Assembly: GCA_945877255.1 (NCBI GenBank)
Contig: CAMCRE010000001.1
Location: 124,001-188,000, forward strand
Source: an uncultured Erysipelotrichaceae bacterium
GTDB taxonomy: Bacteria; Bacillota_I; Bacilli_A; Erysipelotrichales; Erysipelotrichaceae
Direction: 5' to 3'
DNA: 64,000 nt
Part shown: positions 5,409 to 19,027 of the stretch, in pieces
Layout: each line of letters begins with the position of its first letter
Numbering within the stretch: the first letter of the stretch is position 1
The notes under the pieces: model-generated
What the model was told of the DNA's origin: nothing
What the model saw: only the letters and a program-made list of their open reading frames with translations
Database searches by the model: none
Made by a program: the position numbers and the translations under genes

Positions 5409-7160
5409 ATGGAACAAATCTTCACAAATATCAAAAATATCGTCCCAATTCAGGCAGTATATGCAATTATTGCATTAATAGTTGGTTTACTATTTATTTT
5501 ATTACTATTACGTAACATGCGATTACGATTCGCTAAAAAAGAATTAGAGCGATTAGAAAGTAAATTTGATTCAATCAAAGGGATTCCTTTATCATTTAAA
5601 ATTAATAAAGCTGTAGCATTAGGAAGAGTAAATAAATCGTTGAATGATCGTGTTTTTGAAGCACAGCAAATATATGATAAAGTTAATGAAGAAATGCGAA
5701 AAAGTACAACACTATTAGCAGAAATGGATGATTTATTATATAGTAAAAAACATCGTCAAGTTGTTGATAAAGCAACCGACTTAGAAAAACAACTCGACAA
5801 ATTGAAAATCGATGTAGAAAACGTCGATGTTGTATTAGATGATATTTTAAGTCAAGAAAGTGAAAAAAGAGATCAAATCAATCGTTTAAAAGAACAATTT
5901 AGATTGTTGAAACAAAAAATTGGTATTGATAAAACTAAGTTTTATCAAGGTAAAGAATATATTGATTTTGAAATTACGTCAATAGAAAAAATGTTTTCAT
6001 TATTTGAAGAATGGATGTTTGCTTCTGAGTTTGAAAAAGCAAATGAACAGTATAATGAAATTAATGAACACTTGACGCACTTAGAATCATATGTAAATGC
6101 AACACCAGCTATTTTTGATATTATTCATAATAAACTTCAAAAACAAATTGATTCAATTTCATATGCGTATCAAAGTTATCGTAATGAACATATTTATATT
6201 GAACACTTAGGGGTGAAAAATAATTTAGAGTTAGTATCAAACGTTATTAAAGAAAGTATTGCAAAATTATTTAAAGGGAAGTTTGAAAACACAAAAGAAG
6301 AATTAGAACAATGTGATTTAAGATTAATTCAATTGAGTGATCAATTAGTAAAAGAATTTGAAGCATTCAATGAAATACCAATTTTATATCCAGCAATTGT
6401 AAATCATGTTGAACAATTAAATAAAAACACAAACAATATTCAAGCGTTGTATGAAAAATACTATGTTCGCTTCTCGTTAGAAGACTTCAGTACACAAATT
6501 GAAGAATTTAAAGTTAGAATGACTACGATCAATGAAACACTTGAAAAATTAAATGTAGAAGAAAATGCAAATGTGCCAGCTACAACTTATATTGTTGAAC
6601 TTAAAAAAATGCAAGAAGATTGCAATAAATATGAAGCAAGCATTGCAAAATTAAAATCATTACTGCATAATGTTGTGAGTGATGAAAAACGTGCTCGCCA
6701 ACAATTACTAAAATTAAGTTTAATCGTGCATGAAATAGGTATTAAAATGTCAAAATCAAAAGTGTCCTATATTGAAAAAGAATATGAAGATGATCTTGCT
6801 AAAGCACGTAGTATGGTATTTGAAATTCAAAATTTAATTGATGCTTCAGTCGTTAATGTAGAATACTTAAACACAAAAATTAAAGAAAGTATTGATTTTA
6901 TTTATACACTATATCATAATGTGAATAATTTCGTTGGGAAAGCCGTTATGGTTGAAAACTTAATTGTGTTTGGAAACAGATACCGCAGTACTTATCCTGA
7001 ATTAAATTCGCAATTAATTAGAAGTGAGTTATATTACCGTAATGGAGAATATTCTAAGTCACTACAAATTGCAGTAAGTGCGATTGAAAAAATTGTTCCA
7101 GGAATATATGAAAAATTAATTTCTGGTGTTAAGAAAGAAGAAGTAGCAGATATACAATAA
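5409..7160 (+). CDS. ezrA: Septation ring formation regulator EzrA
   Basis: EzrA is a membrane-anchored spectrin-like protein that restrains FtsZ ring assembly and links division to wall synthesis in Bacillota. The 583-residue product (family about 560-575) has a short outside N-terminus, one transmembrane helix at about residues 14-35 (VYAIIALIVGLLFILLLL), then an almost wholly helical, coiled-coil cytoplasmic region rich in Lys and Glu. The early KGIPLSFKINKAVALGRVNKSL block is typical of the family. ATG 5409 follows AGAGG. Its position just before a cysteine desulfurase gene matches Bacillus (ezrA-nifZ) and supports the call. Confidence 0.9.
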   Translation: MEQIFTNIKNIVPIQAVYAIIALIVGLLFILLLLRNMRLRFAKKELERLESKFDSIKGIPLSFKINKAVALGRVNKSLNDRVFEAQQIYDKVNEEMRKSTTLLAEMDDLLYSKKHRQVVDKATDLEKQLDKLKIDVENVDVVLDDILSQESEKRDQINRLKEQFRLLKQKIGIDKTKFYQGKEYIDFEITSIEKMFSLFEEWMFASEFEKANEQYNEINEHLTHLESYVNATPAIFDIIHNKLQKQIDSISYAYQSYRNEHIYIEHLGVKNNLELVSNVIKESIAKLFKGKFENTKEELEQCDLRLIQLSDQLVKEFEAFNEIPILYPAIVNHVEQLNKNTNNIQALYEKYYVRFSLEDFSTQIEEFKVRMTTINETLEKLNVEENANVPATTYIVELKKMQEDCNKYEASIAKLKSLLHNVVSDEKRARQQLLKLSLIVHEIGIKMSKSKVSYIEKEYEDDLAKARSMVFEIQNLIDASVVNVEYLNTKIKESIDFIYTLYHNVNNFVGKAVMVENLIVFGNRYRSTYPELNSQLIRSELYYRNGEYSKSLQIAVSAIEKIVPGIYEKLISGVKKEEVADIQ

Positions 7161-7199: not shown

Positions 7200-8315
7200 A
7201 TGGAAGTATATTTTGATCATAGTTCAGCAACATTCGTAGAACCGGAAGTAATTGAAACTTTTGTGAAAGTAGAACAACAATTATTTGCTAATCCAGATGC
7301 ATTACATCAGAAAGGGTTAGATGTATTAAAACTACAAACACAAGCAAGAGAAAAAATAGCGTCGTTATTAAATGTGAAAAGTGAAGAAATTATTTTTACA
7401 TCAGGAGGATGTGAAGCGAATACATTAGCATTAAAAGGTTACATTGAAAAACATAAGCATCTTAAAAATCATGTTTTAGTTGCGTGTGGAGAGCATTCTA
7501 GTGTTATTAATTGTTTGAAAGCAATTGATAATATTATTGTTGAAGAAATACCATTAAATCATGAAGGTAATATTGATGTTTTGATGTTAAAAAATAAAAT
7601 TAACGATAATACATTACTTGTATCCATTTCTGCTATCCAAAACGAATTTGGAGCAATTAGAGATGTCACTAGTCTAGCAAATTTTTTAAAACAAAATAAC
7701 ATTGTATTTCATGTTGATGCTGTTCAAGCATTAGGAAAACAAGATATTGATTATCAAAATGTTGATTTGATTAGTTTCTCAGGACATAAAATTCATGGAT
7801 TAAAAGGAATAGGAATCTTAGTAAAAAAACAACCTATTCAATTAAATCCGATTATATTTGGTGGTCAACAAGAATTTGGGTTAAGGGGAGGAACAAGTAG
7901 TGTTGCATTACAAGTTGCATTCACAAAAGCACTAAGAATTGCACTCGAAAATATGCGTAAATACCGTGAGCATATTTTAAATTTAAATGATTATTTAAGA
8001 ATGCAACTCAGTAAAATGCCTGAAGTTGAAATCAATTCTACAAATAATGCAACACCCTATATTTTAAATTTTTCGGTAACTGTTTTACCATCACAAGTAA
8101 TATTAAATGCATTAAATCAAAAAGGAATTTATGTTTCTGCGGTTTCAACCTGTGTAACAAAAAGAAAAGCAGTATCGACGATTAGTTGTTATAAAAATGA
8201 TAAAGAAGTGATAGAAGGTGTAATAAGAGTATCATTTTCATATCGTAACACAAAAAATGAAATTGATTATTTTATTAAGGAATTAAAAAACATTATTATT
8301 TCTTATCAAAGATAG
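7200..8315 (+). CDS. nifS: Cysteine desulfurase (NifS/IscS family)
   Basis: A PLP enzyme that removes sulfur from cysteine for tRNA thiolation or Fe-S clusters. The 371-residue protein begins YFDHSSAT (usual form YFDNAAT), has the PLP aspartate in HVDAVQALGK and the PLP lysine at about Lys197 in SGHKIHG, and a mobile-loop cysteine at about Cys318 (VSTCVTKRK), the persulfide carrier. ATG 7200 follows AGGAGG. In Bacillus the gene after ezrA is a desulfurase paired with thiI for 4-thiouridine; no thiI follows here, and accessory DNA starts directly behind the stop. The last 17 nt of the gene recur at 10381. Confidence 0.92.
   Translation: MEVYFDHSSATFVEPEVIETFVKVEQQLFANPDALHQKGLDVLKLQTQAREKIASLLNVKSEEIIFTSGGCEANTLALKGYIEKHKHLKNHVLVACGEHSSVINCLKAIDNIIVEEIPLNHEGNIDVLMLKNKINDNTLLVSISAIQNEFGAIRDVTSLANFLKQNNIVFHVDAVQALGKQDIDYQNVDLISFSGHKIHGLKGIGILVKKQPIQLNPIIFGGQQEFGLRGGTSSVALQVAFTKALRIALENMRKYREHILNLNDYLRMQLSKMPEVEINSTNNATPYILNFSVTVLPSQVILNALNQKGIYVSAVSTCVTKRKAVSTISCYKNDKEVIEGVIRVSFSYRNTKNEIDYFIKELKNIIISYQR
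8299..8315 (+). repeat. Left copy of 17-bp direct repeat (3' end of nifS)
   Basis: TTTCTTATCAAAGATAG, encoding the last residues of NifS and its TAG stop, is repeated exactly at 10381-10397. The bases next to each copy differ, so the match is exactly 17 bp. The pair encloses the lanthipeptide-type genes. Confidence 0.85.
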
Positions 8316-8400
8316 AATTAATGTCGTCATAATGTCAATAACATAAACTATTATGCCAATATAGATGAAATAAAAAATATAAAAAACAATTACGACATCA

Positions 8401-8733
8401 GTGACAGATACATTAACTAAATTGATAGAATCACTTAATATTATTGATACAGTTAATTCTGGATTTTTTTATGGTATAAGTGGTATAGCGTATGTTGTTC
8501 ATGAATATGTAACATATATTGATAATAGTTACGAAGAACGTCTTCGTTTATTGTTAGAAATGCTATGTACACACGCATTTAAATATGATGAGAATTTATA
8601 TTTTTTATCGGATAAATTAATTCGTATTTCACTTGATATTGGTTCAGGTATGTTAGGAATTAGTATGATACTGAATAAAATTTTACACAACAAGGAATTT
8701 AATTTTTTATGTATTGGGGAGGATGGTCTATAA
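8401..8733 (+). pseudogene. C-terminal remnant of a class III/IV lanthipeptide synthetase (LanC-like domain)
   Basis: A 110-codon open frame starting at GTG 8401, with an in-frame TAA at 8380 closing it upstream. GFFYGISGIAYVVHEY resembles the Gly-rich repeats of LanC-like cyclase domains, and the end (FLSDKLIRISLDIGSGMLGI, then FNFLCIG) matches the usual close of LanKC proteins, where a Gln-Leu-Leu-Arg-Leu-Ser then Asp-Leu-Ala-x-Gly-(S/T)-Ala-Gly run precedes a final Leu-Pro-Phe. An intact LanKC has about 800-900 residues with lyase and kinase domains, all absent here. The stop at 8731-8733 is one base from the transporter start, as in a functional operon. This is from family recall without a search, so moderately sure; a free-standing small gene is unlikely because no ribosome binding site precedes the GTG. 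Confidence 0.6.
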
Positions 8734-8734
8734 T

Positions 8735-10279
8735 ATGGGTAATTTATTAAAAATTAAGCTGCATTACAAAATATTGTTAGTTTTTTTGCTATTGATAATA
8801 AGTTTTGAAGGCATATTATTTACATTTATTATTAATTTTGGATATTCGATTAGTACGCATCCAAATATAAAAGATATCGGATTGTTTACTGTAGCACTAC
8901 TTTCCATTAGTGGAGTGATTTATGGAAGTATTTACTTTTTTGAAAAAATAAAGTATTTAATAATCAAACAATCAATGATACATATAAAGAAAAAATATGT
9001 AGCTAATGTTCTATATCGTAATGAAAAACCAGAAACAGTAATTTCGTTTATAAATAACGACTTAAAATTATTTGAGACAAATTATATTAATAGCTATTTT
9101 TCGATTGTTCAAAATCTAGCATTAGCAATTGTTACGACAGTAATAATGTTTACGGTCCAACCATTAATTGCATTAGTTTTTTTAATTTCATCATTATTAA
9201 ATAGTGTGCCTTTAAAAATTTATAAGCATACCTTACATAAAAAAGCAGATCAGTATAAACAAAGTGTAATTGAGTTGAATAAGCAGATGCAAAATACTGT
9301 AAGTGGCGTGAATGTTATCAGACAATATTCTGTGTTTCAATATCACAAAAACCGGGTATTTAATTTTATAAATAAAACTGACGCCGCGTATTATTTTATG
9401 AATTTACAAACTAGATTTGTAACGTTAATAATTAATTTATCATCAATGTTTTCTTTTATTTTTCCTTTTGCAATAGGGCTTTTGTATTCAGCGTATATTC
9501 AATATATTCCGTTTGTTGTATTAATTAATTTTTTTTTTTTAAATGATAGAGTGGTTTCTCCTATTAAAGTTTGCTTTTCAGAATATGTGAAGATAAAACA
9601 AGTTGAATCTATCGTTAGTGAAATTAAAAATGAAATGGAATATGTTATACCTGATGTAGTAGATGATATAGCATTAAGTAGACCAAATGTTAGATTAGAG
9701 AATATTAGTTATTGTATTGAAGACAAATTACTTCTAGATAACACATCATTAGCTATACCATATGGAAAGAAAATTTTGATAACAGGTGATTCAGGTAGTG
9801 GGAAATCCACATTATTAAAGATTATTGCCAATCAAATTAAACCAACGATTGGAAGTGTCATAATACATGATAATAATATTGAATTTGAAAATAATATAGC
9901 ATTTTATTCTTTAATAGAACAAAGTCCACATTTATTTTACGATACTATATTGAACAACATTTGTTTTGGTCGTGAAATGAACATCCATGACGATATTCAT
10001 TTATTGAAAATTAATAAAGAAATCGATGATATGTATGATGACAATTTTTCTGGTGGTGAAAAACAAAAAATCACTGTATTAAGATCAATGTACAGCGATA
10101 GAAAAATATGTCTTGCAGATGAAATGTCTTCAGCGTTGGACAAAGAATCATCTAAAATAATTCGTCGTCAGTTGTTTTCTGATGATATCACTCTAATTGA
10201 AGTAGCACATCATTATGATGATGAATTTATATATGATGAAATATATAAGTTGGAAAACGGCAAATTAATTCGGATATGA
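8735..10279 (+). CDS. ABC transporter, fused permease and ATPase (peptide-export type)
   Basis: A 514-residue half-transporter. Residues 1 to about 280 hold five or six hydrophobic segments (for example ILLVFLLLIISFEGILFTF). The ATPase domain has Walker A GDSGSGKST (near 351), a Q-loop region (IEQSPHLFYDTI), a modified signature FSGGEKQK, Walker B KICLADE and an H-loop histidine in IEVAHH. The helical subdomain between Walker A and the signature is short. ATG 8735 is chosen because GGGGAGG lies 12 nt before it; TTG 8714 and ATG 8723 are too close to or inside that site. The neighbour suggests a lanthipeptide exporter, though no precursor gene or intact synthetase is present, so it may be an orphan. 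Confidence 0.8.
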   Translation: MGNLLKIKLHYKILLVFLLLIISFEGILFTFIINFGYSISTHPNIKDIGLFTVALLSISGVIYGSIYFFEKIKYLIIKQSMIHIKKKYVANVLYRNEKPETVISFINNDLKLFETNYINSYFSIVQNLALAIVTTVIMFTVQPLIALVFLISSLLNSVPLKIYKHTLHKKADQYKQSVIELNKQMQNTVSGVNVIRQYSVFQYHKNRVFNFINKTDAAYYFMNLQTRFVTLIINLSSMFSFIFPFAIGLLYSAYIQYIPFVVLINFFFLNDRVVSPIKVCFSEYVKIKQVESIVSEIKNEMEYVIPDVVDDIALSRPNVRLENISYCIEDKLLLDNTSLAIPYGKKILITGDSGSGKSTLLKIIANQIKPTIGSVIIHDNNIEFENNIAFYSLIEQSPHLFYDTILNNICFGREMNIHDDIHLLKINKEIDDMYDDNFSGGEKQKITVLRSMYSDRKICLADEMSSALDKESSKIIRRQLFSDDITLIEVAHHYDDEFIYDEIYKLENGKLIRI

Positions 10280-10310
10280 GATGCATTTCATGCAGAATAG
10301 TTAAAATTTG

Positions 10311-10397
10311 ATGGCGATTTCAGAATCGAATGTTGTAGCAGGAACGAATTGTGTTGCGACATTTGATTTTGTAATTTACGTTTCTTATCAAAGATAG
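10311..10397 (+). other. Short open frame ending in the direct repeat
   Basis: ATG 10311 opens a 28-codon frame rich in Ser, Thr, Val and Ala with one Cys, ending with the same Ser-Tyr-Gln-Arg-stop as NifS because its last 17 nt are the repeat. There is no clear ribosome binding site. It could be chance, a gene relic, or a modified-peptide precursor fragment; I cannot decide. The rest of 10280-10407 holds nothing I can name. Confidence 0.2.
10381..10397 (+). repeat. Right copy of 17-bp direct repeat
   Basis: Exact copy of 8299-8315 (TTTCTTATCAAAGATAG). It sits immediately before the thrS promoter region and marks the right edge of the accessory patch. Confidence 0.85.
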
Positions 10398-10407
10398 GAC
10401 ATTTTAG

Positions 10408-10436
10408 TTGTAAAAAAATGAAAAATATAGTATATA
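10408..10436 (+). promoter_or_regulatory. Promoter of the thrS T-box leader
   Basis: TTGTAA (10408-10413), 17 nt, TATATA (10431-10436). It gives a transcript start near 10443, at the beginning of the T-box stem I. Confidence 0.55.
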
Positions 10437-10442
10437 TTAAGT

Positions 10443-10652
10443 ATCAGTGATGATAAGGACAACAAATAATGTCAATTATATTTAGAGAAAAAGTGGTTGG
10501 TGAAAACTTTTTATAACACATTATTTTACTACCTTTGAACTATGTTATGAAAATAACATCGTGTTTCTAGCGTTAATAGAGTAGAGGTGTATTTAATACA
10601 TAAAAAAAGGTGGTACCACGAAACTTTCGTCCTTTGGTGAAAGTTTTTTTAT
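10443..10652 (+). promoter_or_regulatory. T-box leader (tRNA-Thr sensing) with terminator
   Basis: The leader has an AAGGACAA start, a stem I apical part (GTGGTTGGTGAAAAC), a candidate threonine specifier ACC at 10531-10533 (ACT at 10528-10530 is also possible), the conserved T-box AGGTGGTACCACG at 10608-10620 and a terminator: AAACTTTC (10621-10628) pairing with GAAAGTTT (10639-10646) and a T tract. Uncharged tRNA would pair with the T-box, favour the antiterminator and allow thrS transcription. Confidence 0.93.
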
Positions 10653-10667
10653 TTTATAGGAGGAAAT

Positions 10668-12413
10668 ATGATTAACTTAGATATTAGAGAAGATGCGTAT
10701 TTGTCAAAACTAAATCACTCAGCAGCCCATGTTATGGCACAAGCAATCTCACGCTTATATCCAAACGCTAAATTTTGGGTAGGACCAGTAATACGAGAAG
10801 GTTTTTATTATGATGTGGATTTAGGTGATATTTCATTAAAAGAAGAAGATTTAGTAAAAATAGAGAAAGAAATGAAAAAAATCTCTAAAGATGGTAAAAA
10901 AATTATACGCGAAGAAATTTCAAAAAAAGATGCACTAGAAGCGTTTAAAAATGATCACTATAAATTAGAATTGATTGAAAATTTAAACGATGGCGAAATT
11001 ACGATTTATCGTCAAGGTGATTGGTTTGACTTATGTCGTGGACCGCATGTTGAAACATGTAAAGAAGTCAAACATTTTAAATTGTTGAAGGTAAGTGGTG
11101 CGTATTGGAAAAATGATGCAAAAAATAAAATGTTGCAGAGAATTTATGGCGTTTGTTTTGAAAGTGAAGAAGCATTAAATAACCATTTATTTTTATTAGA
11201 AGAAGCTAAAAAACGTGATCATAAAAAAATAGGAAAAGAAATGGGATTATTTATGGTTAGTGAATATTCACCAGGAAATCCATTTTTCTTACCAAAAGGA
11301 ATGATTTTAAGAAACATACTTGAAAACTACTGGTACAGTGAGCATGAAAAAGAAAACTACTTATTTATCAAAACACCAATTATGTTAAACCAACAATTAT
11401 GGGAAATAAGTGGGCACTGGAACAATTATCGTGAAAACATGTATGTTTCAGAAGTAGATGACAAATTGTTTGCGATTAAACCAATGAATTGTCCAGGATG
11501 TATTTTAGTGTATAAAAATGGCTTACATTCATATAAAGATTTACCAATACGAATGGGTGAATTAGGACTAGTACATCGTCATGAAGCTAGTGGTGCATTA
11601 AACGGTTTATTTAGAGTACGTAGCTTTACACAAGATGATGCACATATTTTTATGTGTGAAGATCAAATTGAAAGTGAAGTGCTATCATTAATGCACTTTA
11701 TTGAAAGAACATATAAAGTGTTTGGTTTAGATTATGACATTGAGTTGTCTACAAGACCATTAGAAAAATATATCGGAGATATCGAAACTTGGAATAAAAG
11801 TGAAGAAGCATTAGCAAATGCGTGTAAAAAGTTTGGTAAACCATACAAAATTAATCCAGGTGATGGTGCATTTTATGGTCCAAAATTAGATTTCAAAATT
11901 CGTGATTCATTAGGGAGAGTATGGCAATGTGGAACAATTCAATTAGATATGAATTTACCAGAACGTTTTGATATGAATTATATCGATAGTGATGGAAATA
12001 AAAAAAGACCAATCATGCTACATCGTGTAGTATACGGTTCAATGGAACGTTTTATTGGGGTATTAATCGAACATTTTGCAGGAAACTTCCCGCTATGGTT
12101 TGCACCAGAACAAATTCGTGTATTACCGGTGCATCATGAATATCATGGTGAATATGCAAGACAGCTAAACGAACAATTCAAACAATTAGGATTTAGAAGT
12201 ACTGTTGATGATCGAAATGAGAAATTAGGTTATCGTTTACGTGAAGCACAAATGAATAAAGTACCATTACAAGTTGTAATTGGAGATGGTGAAATAGAAA
12301 AAGGGGAAGTAAACTTACGTAAATATGGTCATAAAGATAGTGAAAATATGACATTAGAACAGTTTATTGAATACGTAAAAAACAAAATCGCTTCAAAAGA
12401 ATTAAATGATTAA
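10668..12413 (+). CDS. thrS: Threonyl-tRNA synthetase lacking the TGS domain
   Basis: Charges tRNA-Thr. The 581-residue protein starts almost at the editing domain: HSAAH (residues 17-21) and DLCRGPH provide the His and Cys of the mischarged-Ser editing site. Class II catalytic motifs follow, with MNCPGC (zinc cysteine), motif 2 VHRHEASGALNGLFRVRSF and motif 3 GSMERFIGVLIEHFAG, then a C-terminal anticodon-binding domain. Usual bacterial ThrRS has about 640 residues with a TGS domain of about 60 residues first. ATG 10668 follows AGGAGG by 6 nt and no upstream in-frame coding is possible through the terminator, so the absence looks real. Controlled by the T-box. Confidence 0.95.
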   Translation: MINLDIREDAYLSKLNHSAAHVMAQAISRLYPNAKFWVGPVIREGFYYDVDLGDISLKEEDLVKIEKEMKKISKDGKKIIREEISKKDALEAFKNDHYKLELIENLNDGEITIYRQGDWFDLCRGPHVETCKEVKHFKLLKVSGAYWKNDAKNKMLQRIYGVCFESEEALNNHLFLLEEAKKRDHKKIGKEMGLFMVSEYSPGNPFFLPKGMILRNILENYWYSEHEKENYLFIKTPIMLNQQLWEISGHWNNYRENMYVSEVDDKLFAIKPMNCPGCILVYKNGLHSYKDLPIRMGELGLVHRHEASGALNGLFRVRSFTQDDAHIFMCEDQIESEVLSLMHFIERTYKVFGLDYDIELSTRPLEKYIGDIETWNKSEEALANACKKFGKPYKINPGDGAFYGPKLDFKIRDSLGRVWQCGTIQLDMNLPERFDMNYIDSDGNKKRPIMLHRVVYGSMERFIGVLIEHFAGNFPLWFAPEQIRVLPVHHEYHGEYARQLNEQFKQLGFRSTVDDRNEKLGYRLREAQMNKVPLQVVIGDGEIEKGEVNLRKYGHKDSENMTLEQFIEYVKNKIASKELND

Positions 12414-16669: not shown

Positions 16670-19027
16670 ATGTTAGTAAGTAGAAAGTATATTGAACAAT
16701 ATTTTAATTTAGAAAATTACACTAATGATGCAATTGCAGAAGCATTAACCACATCTGGGTTTGAAGTAGAAGGCGTAATTGCTTATGATTTCAAAAACAA
16801 ATTAGTTGTTGGGGAAGTATTAACATGTGAAAAACATCCAGATAGTGATCATTTGCATATTTGTACTGTTGATGTAGCAATCGAACAACTACAAATTGTT
16901 TGTGGTGCAAAAAATGTAGCTGTTGGACAAAAAGTAATTGTTGCATTGGTAGGGTGTGAATTACCGCAGTTGAAAATCACAAAAAGTAAAGTTAGAGGGA
17001 TTGAAAGTAGTGGCATGTTATGTTCATTAGTAGAATTAGGTGTACCTGAAAGTACACTAACTGATGAACAAAAAAATGGTATTGAAATTTTAAAGTCTGA
17101 TGCAATTATAGGAGATATTGCGAATAAATATATTGGATTAGATGATGTTATTTTTGAATTAGGTGTGACACCTAATAGAAGTGATGTTGTAGCTTTAAAT
17201 AACTTGTTGAAAGAATTAGCAGCGATTTTCAACCAACAAATTAATATTGAAATCCCAACTGTTACCACAAATTTAATTGATACACCATTAAAAGTAGCAT
17301 GTTCAGAGAATCGTTATATTTCGGCACAAAAAATTGAAAATATTACAATCAAAGATAGTAGTGAACATATCCAATCATTACTAAAAACTTATAATATTAA
17401 ATCAATTAACAACATTGTGGATATTTCAAACTATGTTGCACTATTAACAGGACAACCAAACCATATATATGATGCTGAATTTGTGAAAGGTTCTTTAAGA
17501 ATAGTTGATGACTATGAAGGCGAATTTGTGGCATTAGATGGTAATACATACAATATTGTTAAAGGTGATCTGATGATATTTGATGATGAAAAACCGTTAG
17601 GAATTGCTGGTATTATGGGTGGAGAGTATAGTAAAGTAACAGAAAACACTAAAAATGTGATTATCGAAGTAGCTAATTTTGAAAGAATGAAAATTAGAAA
17701 CACATCACGTCGACTAAATATTACAAGTGAATCAAGTATTAAATATCAAAAAAATATTGATCCACAAGCTAGTGACTACGCTAGTCGTTATATTGTTGAT
17801 TTACTAATTAAAGAAGCAGATGCAAAAAATGTTTATAATAAAATTGAATCATCACAAAAACAAATTAATTTAACAACATTAAAATTAGACTATCAACGTT
17901 TAAATAACCATTTAGGAAGTCATTTCTCAAAAGAAGAAGTGTTTTCTGTTATGAAAAGATTAGATTTTGAAATTAAAAATGATGAAATAACGATTCCTTC
18001 ATATCGTAGTGATATTACAGTTGCAGAAGACTTATATGAAGAAGTAATTCGTTTGTTAGGATATGATCATTTACCGACAACATTACCGACTGTTTCAGCA
18101 AGTAATAAATCATTGCCATTAATTCAGAAAATGCAACGCAATATCTCACAATTTTTAAATAAAAATGGTATACAACAAGCTATGACATATACATTAATTA
18201 GCGATGAATTGAATAGTTTTGCGTTAAATGTAAAAGAAGATGCAATTTCACTTGCATCACCATTAAGTGATGATCGTAAAATAATTAGAAGAAGTATTTT
18301 ACCATCACTATTAGAAGTATTAGCGTACAATGAATCACGCAGTGTTGAAAATTGTTCATTGTATGAAATTAGTGATGTTACGGATAAAGAAAGTTCAGAA
18401 AATCGTTTATCAATTGTATTATCTGGCAATAAATACGCAAATAAATGGAACAATCATGTTGTAACGAATGATTTTTATGTCATGAAATCGTTAATTACGC
18501 AAATGTTGGTGCAGTTAGGTTATGATAAACAACGAATAGTGTATCAAGCAAACACAAATCAATCATTAATGCACCCTTATCAATGTGTTGATGTATATAT
18601 CGGACGTGATTTCATCGGAACGTTTGGAACGATACATCCTACTATCTCTAAAAAGTTCATTGTTTCTAAATGTGTATTAGCAGAATTAAACTTAACTAAA
18701 TTAGAATCATTAAAAGTAGGAAAAATAAAATATACACCAGTATCCCGTTACCAAAGTGTAAAACGAGATATTGCGATTTTAGTAGATAAAAGTGTAACAT
18801 ATGGTGCAATTAAATCTGTGATTGAAAAAACAGGAAAATCATTAATAAAATCGCTTGAAGTATTCGATATTTATGAAGGTGAAAATATTGGTAGCGATAA
18901 AAAGTCAATGGCGATTCGTATTACATTACAATCACAAACAGAAACGTTAGATAATCACACGATCCAATCATTAATGGAAAATATTACAACAACATTAACA
19001 ACACAATTAAACGCACAAATAAGATAG
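16670..19027 (+). CDS. pheT: Phenylalanyl-tRNA synthetase beta subunit
   Basis: Tetramer partner of PheS with editing and tRNA-binding roles. The 785-residue protein (usual about 800) shows the domains in order: N-terminal B1, an EMAPII-like OB fold (LVVGEVLTCEKHPDSDHL and CGAKNVAVGQKV, residues 40-150), B3/B4 editing domain (210-360, with NNIVDISNY), B5 (about 400-470), the catalytic-like core, and a C-terminal anticodon-binding domain (YTPVSRYQSVKRDIAILV, from about 695). ATG 16670 follows AGGAGAG. Confidence 0.96.
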   Translation: MLVSRKYIEQYFNLENYTNDAIAEALTTSGFEVEGVIAYDFKNKLVVGEVLTCEKHPDSDHLHICTVDVAIEQLQIVCGAKNVAVGQKVIVALVGCELPQLKITKSKVRGIESSGMLCSLVELGVPESTLTDEQKNGIEILKSDAIIGDIANKYIGLDDVIFELGVTPNRSDVVALNNLLKELAAIFNQQINIEIPTVTTNLIDTPLKVACSENRYISAQKIENITIKDSSEHIQSLLKTYNIKSINNIVDISNYVALLTGQPNHIYDAEFVKGSLRIVDDYEGEFVALDGNTYNIVKGDLMIFDDEKPLGIAGIMGGEYSKVTENTKNVIIEVANFERMKIRNTSRRLNITSESSIKYQKNIDPQASDYASRYIVDLLIKEADAKNVYNKIESSQKQINLTTLKLDYQRLNNHLGSHFSKEEVFSVMKRLDFEIKNDEITIPSYRSDITVAEDLYEEVIRLLGYDHLPTTLPTVSASNKSLPLIQKMQRNISQFLNKNGIQQAMTYTLISDELNSFALNVKEDAISLASPLSDDRKIIRRSILPSLLEVLAYNESRSVENCSLYEISDVTDKESSENRLSIVLSGNKYANKWNNHVVTNDFYVMKSLITQMLVQLGYDKQRIVYQANTNQSLMHPYQCVDVYIGRDFIGTFGTIHPTISKKFIVSKCVLAELNLTKLESLKVGKIKYTPVSRYQSVKRDIAILVDKSVTYGAIKSVIEKTGKSLIKSLEVFDIYEGENIGSDKKSMAIRITLQSQTETLDNHTIQSLMENITTTLTTQLNAQIR

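What the first reader, a model, noticed from the sequence alone, without database searches (positions are those of the whole stretch)
8401..10279. Beheaded class III lanthipeptide synthetase beside a possibly intact exporter
The open frame at 8401-8733 has the closing motifs of LanKC-type synthetases (Leu-Ile-Arg-Ile-Ser-x-Asp-Ile-Gly-Ser-Gly, then Phe-Leu) and ends one base before an ABC exporter start, but the lyase, kinase and most of the cyclase domain are missing. No precursor gene is visible. Either it is decay after an insertion, or the fragment has been kept. The exporter could now serve as immunity against a peptide the cell no longer makes.
Basis: partly seen in the sequence, partly recalled or inferred. 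Interest (0 to 1): 0.6.

Follow-up and report, generated by a model that had tools for sequence, protein, structure and literature searches.

The report
Remnant lanthipeptide operon with intact exporter
A bacterium with a small genome carries only the last eighth of a gene for making a ring-containing peptide, next to a complete export pump; the peptide gene and the working part of the enzyme are gone, so this is most likely the leftover of a lost peptide-making operon, an ordinary kind of gene decay.

Summary
The 110-codon frame at 8401-8733 is the extreme C-terminus of a class III lanthipeptide synthetase: it matches the last 90 of 833 positions of NCBIfam's LanKC model (E 1.2e-10), the last ~94 residues of solved 866-residue LanKC chains, and the C-terminal repeat of intact LanKCs in Streptomyces and in the same bacterial family. 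The lyase, kinase and most of the cyclase are absent, not scattered in other frames, and no RamC_N domain was found anywhere in this 98%-complete genome. The downstream ABC half-exporter (8735-10279) looks complete: all ATPase motifs, membrane helices, and a predicted fold closest to the peptide exporter PCAT1. One of 273 genomes of the same family has an intact version: regulator, a candidate 31-residue precursor with leader and SxxSxxC core, a full LanKC, and one directly coupled ABC exporter, the same gene order as here. No precursor is recognisable in the window. A perfect 17-bp direct repeat brackets the remnant, suggesting that it entered (or was cut down) as a unit behind the cysteine desulfurase gene. 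Best reading: a truncated lanKC pseudogene plus a still-intact exporter. Retention of the exporter as immunity is possible but untested. Ordinary gene decay; low interest.

The parts
8299..8315 (+). Left copy of a perfect 17-bp direct repeat, the last 17 bases of the cysteine desulfurase gene
   Evidence: exact copy at 10381-10397; 1 of 500 shuffles of the 2.5 kb had any 17-mer repeat, but four other stretches of the 64 kb also hold close 17-mer repeats, so suggestive only
8316..8400 (.). 85-bp AT-rich gap between the desulfurase stop and the fragment; the truncation point of lanKC lies here; single copy in the genome
   Evidence: no second full copy in the genome; no LanKC homology in other frames
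8401..8733 (+). C-terminal remnant of lanKC (class III lanthipeptide synthetase), the last part of the cyclase domain; no ribosome-binding site at the GTG
   Evidence: the genome search places the start of homology at window 8392, three codons before the GTG
8735..10279 (+). Complete ABC half-exporter (514 aa), peptide/RiPP exporter type without C39 peptidase
   Evidence: Walker A GDSGSGKST, signature FSGGEKQK, Walker B ICLADE, H-loop His; mean pLDDT 78.6; Foldseek best PCAT1
10280..10380 (.). Stretch without recognisable gene between the exporter stop and the right repeat
10381..10397 (+). Right copy of the 17-bp direct repeat, just before the thrS T-box leader

Best explanation
The region is the remnant of a class III lanthipeptide operon of the layout lanA - lanKC - one ABC exporter. 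The precursor gene and almost 90% of lanKC (lyase, kinase and most of the cyclase) are missing, with one sharp truncation point, leaving the last ~95 codons of lanKC as a pseudogene and the exporter gene whole. The enzyme cannot work: it has no lyase, no kinase and no complete cyclase. The exporter can still be made from its own Shine-Dalgarno-like sequence if transcription from the ezrA-desulfurase side reaches it, and would pump a peptide or similar substrate out of the cell. Shown: the homology, the truncation, the absence of the rest from the genome assembly, the intact exporter sequence and predicted fold, the same gene order in an intact relative. Inferred: that an ancestor of this DNA held the whole operon, that the exporter is expressed, and what it moves.
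For: Fragment = positions 744-833 of 833 of LanKC model NF038151, E 1.2e-10; matches the C-terminal ~94 residues of full LanKC structures, the last repeat of three actinobacterial LanKCs and of an intact LanKC from the same family (G632, L154). Only one other LanKC-model hit in the genome, and it is a PASTA-type Ser/Thr kinase; no RamC_N domain in G000. Same-family G632 has a candidate 31-aa precursor, a full LanKC (482.6 bits over positions 6-830) and one ABC exporter overlapping the LanKC end. In Mollicutes (TGA=Trp) full-length LanKC-like genes sit directly beside ABC half-exporters. Exporter complete. No precursor by leader+core motif in the window. The fragment alone gave no confident fold (pLDDT 47).
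Against: The fragment keeps a coding-like base pattern (GC by codon position 0.38/0.26/0.155) and an open frame, so decay must be recent or the frame is under some constraint. The genome is a 20-contig draft; an assembly fault at this spot cannot be excluded, although both flanks are housekeeping genes on one 188-kb contig. The exporter is only about 20-25% identical to other RiPP- or LanKC-linked exporters, so its link to lanKC rests mainly on gene order.
Confidence: 0.85

Rival explanations
1. The exporter is kept by selection as self-protection or general peptide efflux after loss of the biosynthetic genes (an 'orphan immunity' pump); the lanKC end persists only because it carries the exporter's translation start region. 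(A sub-case of the best explanation, not exclusive of it.)
For: Exporter ORF and all ATPase motifs intact over 514 codons in a 26% G+C background where stops arise easily. In one Mollicute genome (G149, L077) the lanKC is likewise broken into pieces while both exporter genes are whole.
Against: No close relative for a dN/dS test; no expression data; recent decay explains an intact frame equally well. Many class III lanthipeptides have no known antibacterial activity (my own knowledge), so immunity may not be needed.
Confidence: 0.25
2. The piece arrived already truncated: a horizontally acquired 2.1-kb segment with only the 3' end of lanKC plus the exporter, captured between copies of a 17-bp sequence behind the desulfurase gene.
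For: Perfect 17-bp repeats bracket the unit exactly at the desulfurase stop and before the thrS leader; relatives have thiI, not this unit, after the desulfurase, and thiI is on another contig here; only 1 of 273 family genomes has a RamC_N domain.
Against: No integrase, transposase or terminal inverted repeats; base composition does not differ from the neighbours; close 17-mer repeats occur elsewhere in the window.
Confidence: 0.3
3. The 110-residue frame is a functional stand-alone protein, for example a partner or regulator of the exporter.
For: Open frame with coding-like composition, directly followed by the exporter.
Against: No ribosome-binding site at its start, homology to LanKC runs past the start codon, no confident fold on its own, no stand-alone homologue in any searched collection.
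Confidence: 0.04

Closest known systems
Class III lanthipeptide synthetase LanKC (NF038151; solved ~866-residue chains 8w7a, 8w7j, 8w7l)
   Same: The fragment aligns to their C-terminal ~94 residues, including the closing (I/L)R(I/L)SxD(I/L)xxG motif
   Different: About 740 of 833 model positions (lyase, kinase, most of the cyclase) are missing
Intact class III operon of a same-family genome (G632, locus L154: regulator, candidate lanA 7026-7121, lanKC ending 9706, ABC 9687-11261)
   Same: Gene order lanKC followed at once by a single ABC half-exporter; same C-terminal repeat
   Different: Complete, with a candidate 31-residue precursor (leader LLSLQ, core SSISIIC); lies at another genomic site; its exporter is a distant homologue (E 1.8e-19)
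Streptosactin exporter GggC (NF050039) and PCAT1
   Same: Best NCBIfam hit of the exporter (E 1.5e-42, 146.5 bits); half-exporter size without C39 peptidase as in GggC; predicted fold closest to the PCAT1 core (TM 0.85)
   Different: Score far below the GggC cut-off (750 bits); neighbours here are not radical-SAM genes
Firmicute class III clusters with an ABC transporter and no protease (precursor family III 6 of PMC7268733)
   Same: lanKC with an ABC-type transporter in the cluster
   Different: Complete clusters in Bacillus and Staphylococcus; here only a remnant

Membership tests
Class III lanthipeptide synthetase (LanKC) | C-terminal LanC-like cyclase end of LanKC type | tested here: met
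   (E 1.2e-10 to positions 744-833)
Class III lanthipeptide synthetase (LanKC) | N-terminal RamC-type lyase domain | tested here: not met
   no RamC_N or LanKC N-terminus in the window or genome
Class III lanthipeptide synthetase (LanKC) | Central kinase domain | tested here: not met
   only a separate PASTA kinase elsewhere in the genome
Class III lanthipeptide synthetase (LanKC) | Full score over the curated cut-off | tested here: not met
   40.5 bits versus 575
Functional class III lanthipeptide operon | Precursor gene lanA with leader motif and SxxSxxxC-type core | tested here: not met
   none in 8100-10700 or in the whole window by motif; the same scan finds one in G632
ABC exporter (half-transporter, ABCB type) | Transmembrane domain plus ATPase domain with Walker A/B, signature and H-loop | tested here: met
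Self-immunity exporter | Confers resistance to a peptide | not testable with these tools
   needs an experiment

The most novel reading that the evidence does not exclude
The exporter is under purifying selection as an orphan immunity or defence pump in a lineage that has discarded the matching lanthipeptide, a 'cheater' resistant to a peptide it no longer makes.
Probability: 0.2. Interest if true: 0.4.

Novelty: new member of a known kind. Interest (0 to 1): 0.2.

Why it matters
On its own it is one more decayed peptide operon in a reduced genome. It would gain weight if the exporter proved to be kept under selection, since that would document a change from producer to resistant non-producer for a class III lanthipeptide. 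The comparison also turned up intact class III-like loci with candidate precursors in Mollicutes and in one relative of this organism, for which searches of the held papers found no description.

Tried and rejected
Fragment as part of another LanC-like family: the LanKC model is far better than Pfam LANC_like. Frameshifted rather than deleted lanKC: no further LanKC homology in any frame of the window. lanKC moved elsewhere in the genome: only a PASTA kinase rings. 85-bp gap as a MITE/IS scar: no second full copy in the genome, only short AT-rich matches. Plasmid origin: no DNA match to the 2.1-kb unit and no protein match of the fragment in plasmids. Sister species by pattern scan of genome contigs: none. 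Structure of the fragment: no confident model. Search for lanthipeptides in Spiroplasma, Mycoplasma or Tenericutes in held papers: nothing relevant.

Full report
What is there. The window lies in a 1.26-Mb, 98% complete draft genome. Between a cysteine desulfurase gene (7200-8315) and the T-box leader (10441-10637) of thrS there are two frames in line: 8401-8733 (110 aa, GTG) and an ABC half-exporter whose ATG at 8735 follows the first stop by one base. A GGGGAGG lies at about 8716-8722, inside the end of the first frame, and could start the exporter; nothing like it precedes the GTG at 8401.

Identity of the fragment. NCBIfam's class III synthetase model NF038151 matches residues 3-92 at model positions 744-833 of 833, E 1.2e-10. 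Pfam LANC_like gives only E 0.008. PDB chains of a full-length LanKC (8w7a, 8w7j, 8w7l; about 866 residues) match at residues 766-859, E 8e-5. In intact LanKCs of Streptomyces curacoi, S. chattanoogensis and Kitasatospora xanthocidica the match is again the last repeat, with the same closing motif (for example GEQLLRLSTDLATGAAG against SDKLIRISLDIGSGMLG). A LanKC profile built from 13 Mollicute sequences without the fragment scores it 13.3 bits at columns 625-719 of 723; the best of 1000 shuffles reaches 7.6.

What is missing. A six-frame scan of the whole window with that profile finds only 8383-8730. In the genome NF038151 rings in one other place, a 515-aa Ser/Thr kinase with PASTA domains, and the RamC_N (lyase-side) domain is absent from the genome. 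Homology starts at window 8392, before the GTG start, so the start codon is probably accidental. AlphaFold gives no confident model of the fragment (pLDDT 47). It therefore cannot be a working synthetase, and there is no sign that it is a protein of its own: no homologue in 97 relatives, only marginal matches in 392 genomes of the phylum, none in plasmids or in the pattern scan of genome contigs.

The exporter. 514 aa; Walker A GDSGSGKST, signature FSGGEKQK, Walker B ICLADE, H-loop histidine, and membrane helices over the first half. The predicted fold (mean pLDDT 78.6) is a complete ABC exporter, closest to the peptide exporter PCAT1 (TM up to 0.85 by query length). By sequence its best NCBIfam model is the streptosactin exporter GggC (E 1.5e-42, below that model's cut-off); some of its nearest homologues in the class stand next to radical-SAM peptide-maturase-like genes (L129, L133; that naming is from my reading of the sequences). 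It resembles the exporters that accompany modified-peptide operons.

The intact counterpart. Of 273 genomes of the same family one, G632, has a RamC_N domain. Its locus L154 holds a regulator-like gene, a 31-aa ORF MEELLSLQKMAVQDPAEDFASSISIICHTAE (class III-like leader motif LLSLQ and an SxxSxxC core), a full LanKC (482.6 bits over positions 6-830 of 833) and, overlapping its end, a single ABC exporter of about 525 aa homologous to ours (E 1.8e-19). The same motif scan finds no precursor in the present window. Gene order lanKC - ABC is thus what an intact operon of this family can look like, and our locus equals its 3' end. In Mollicutes, full-length LanKC-like genes (RamC_N, kinase, LanC-like end; TGA read as Trp) are likewise placed beside ABC half-exporters.

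How it came about. A perfect 17-bp repeat ends the desulfurase gene (8299-8315) and recurs at 10381-10397, bracketing the unit. One of 500 shuffles of the 2.5-kb region had such a repeat, but four other stretches of the 64-kb window also hold close 17-mer repeats, so this is suggestive only. Relatives have ezrA - desulfurase - thiI (thiI named from its sequence start); here thiI is on another contig. No mobile element is present at the site and the 85-bp gap is single-copy. Either a whole operon was inserted and then cut down, or a truncated piece was captured; the data do not decide.

Function now. Most likely none for the fragment. The exporter could still be made and could pump a peptide; whether it is kept for immunity is untested. 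Its frame is intact, but the fragment too keeps coding-like base composition, so the decay may simply be recent. In one Mollicute genome (L077) a lanKC is broken into pieces beside two whole exporter genes, which shows that the pattern can recur but not that it is selected.

Known or new. Class III clusters in Firmicutes, some with an ABC transporter and no protease, are described (PMC7268733). This locus is a degenerate example. Interest is low; the side finding of class III-like loci with candidate precursors in Mollicutes deserves more attention than the remnant itself.

Noticed in passing
L064-L076, L079 (Mollicute genomes G199, G187, G110, G308, G215, G196, G209, G142, G352, G162, G181, G117, G269, G208): LanKC-like genes of 600-770 aa (RamC_N, kinase with conserved D/N/D, LanC-like end; TGA=Trp) beside one to three ABC half-exporters, i.e. 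class III lanthipeptide-like loci in Mycoplasma/Spiroplasma-type genomes; held papers searched for Mycoplasma, Spiroplasma or Tenericutes plus lanthipeptide gave nothing on this.
   Followed up: partly
L065:6725-6829 and L066:6159-6263 (+), just upstream of lanKC: 34-aa ORF MTINEILDLQINTEKETPVFASEAIIQITIICKA with a class III-like leader motif (ILDLQ) and a Ser/Thr/Cys tail, a candidate precursor; weaker candidates at L064:5925-6065 and L067:4672-4806.
   Followed up: partly
L154:7026-7121 (+), genome G632 of the same family: Candidate class III precursor MEELLSLQKMAVQDPAEDFASSISIICHTAE between a regulator-like gene and an intact lanKC-ABC pair; an apparently complete class III operon.
   Followed up: partly
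L077:6260-11252 (+), genome G149: lanKC in separated pieces (168 and 149 aa) followed by two intact ABC half-exporter genes, a parallel case of synthetase decay with exporter intact.
   Followed up: partly
window 7200-8315; L145 (G000:C10 around 17131-18219): Relatives have ezrA-cysteine desulfurase-thiI; here thiI is not at the site and lies on another contig.
   Followed up: partly
window 10311-10397 (+): Short frame MAISESNVVAGTNCVATFDFVIYVSYQR without ribosome-binding site, ending in the same 17 bp (SYQR-stop) as the desulfurase gene; contains a VVAGTN run reminiscent of cystatin-type inhibitors, probably chance.
   Followed up: no
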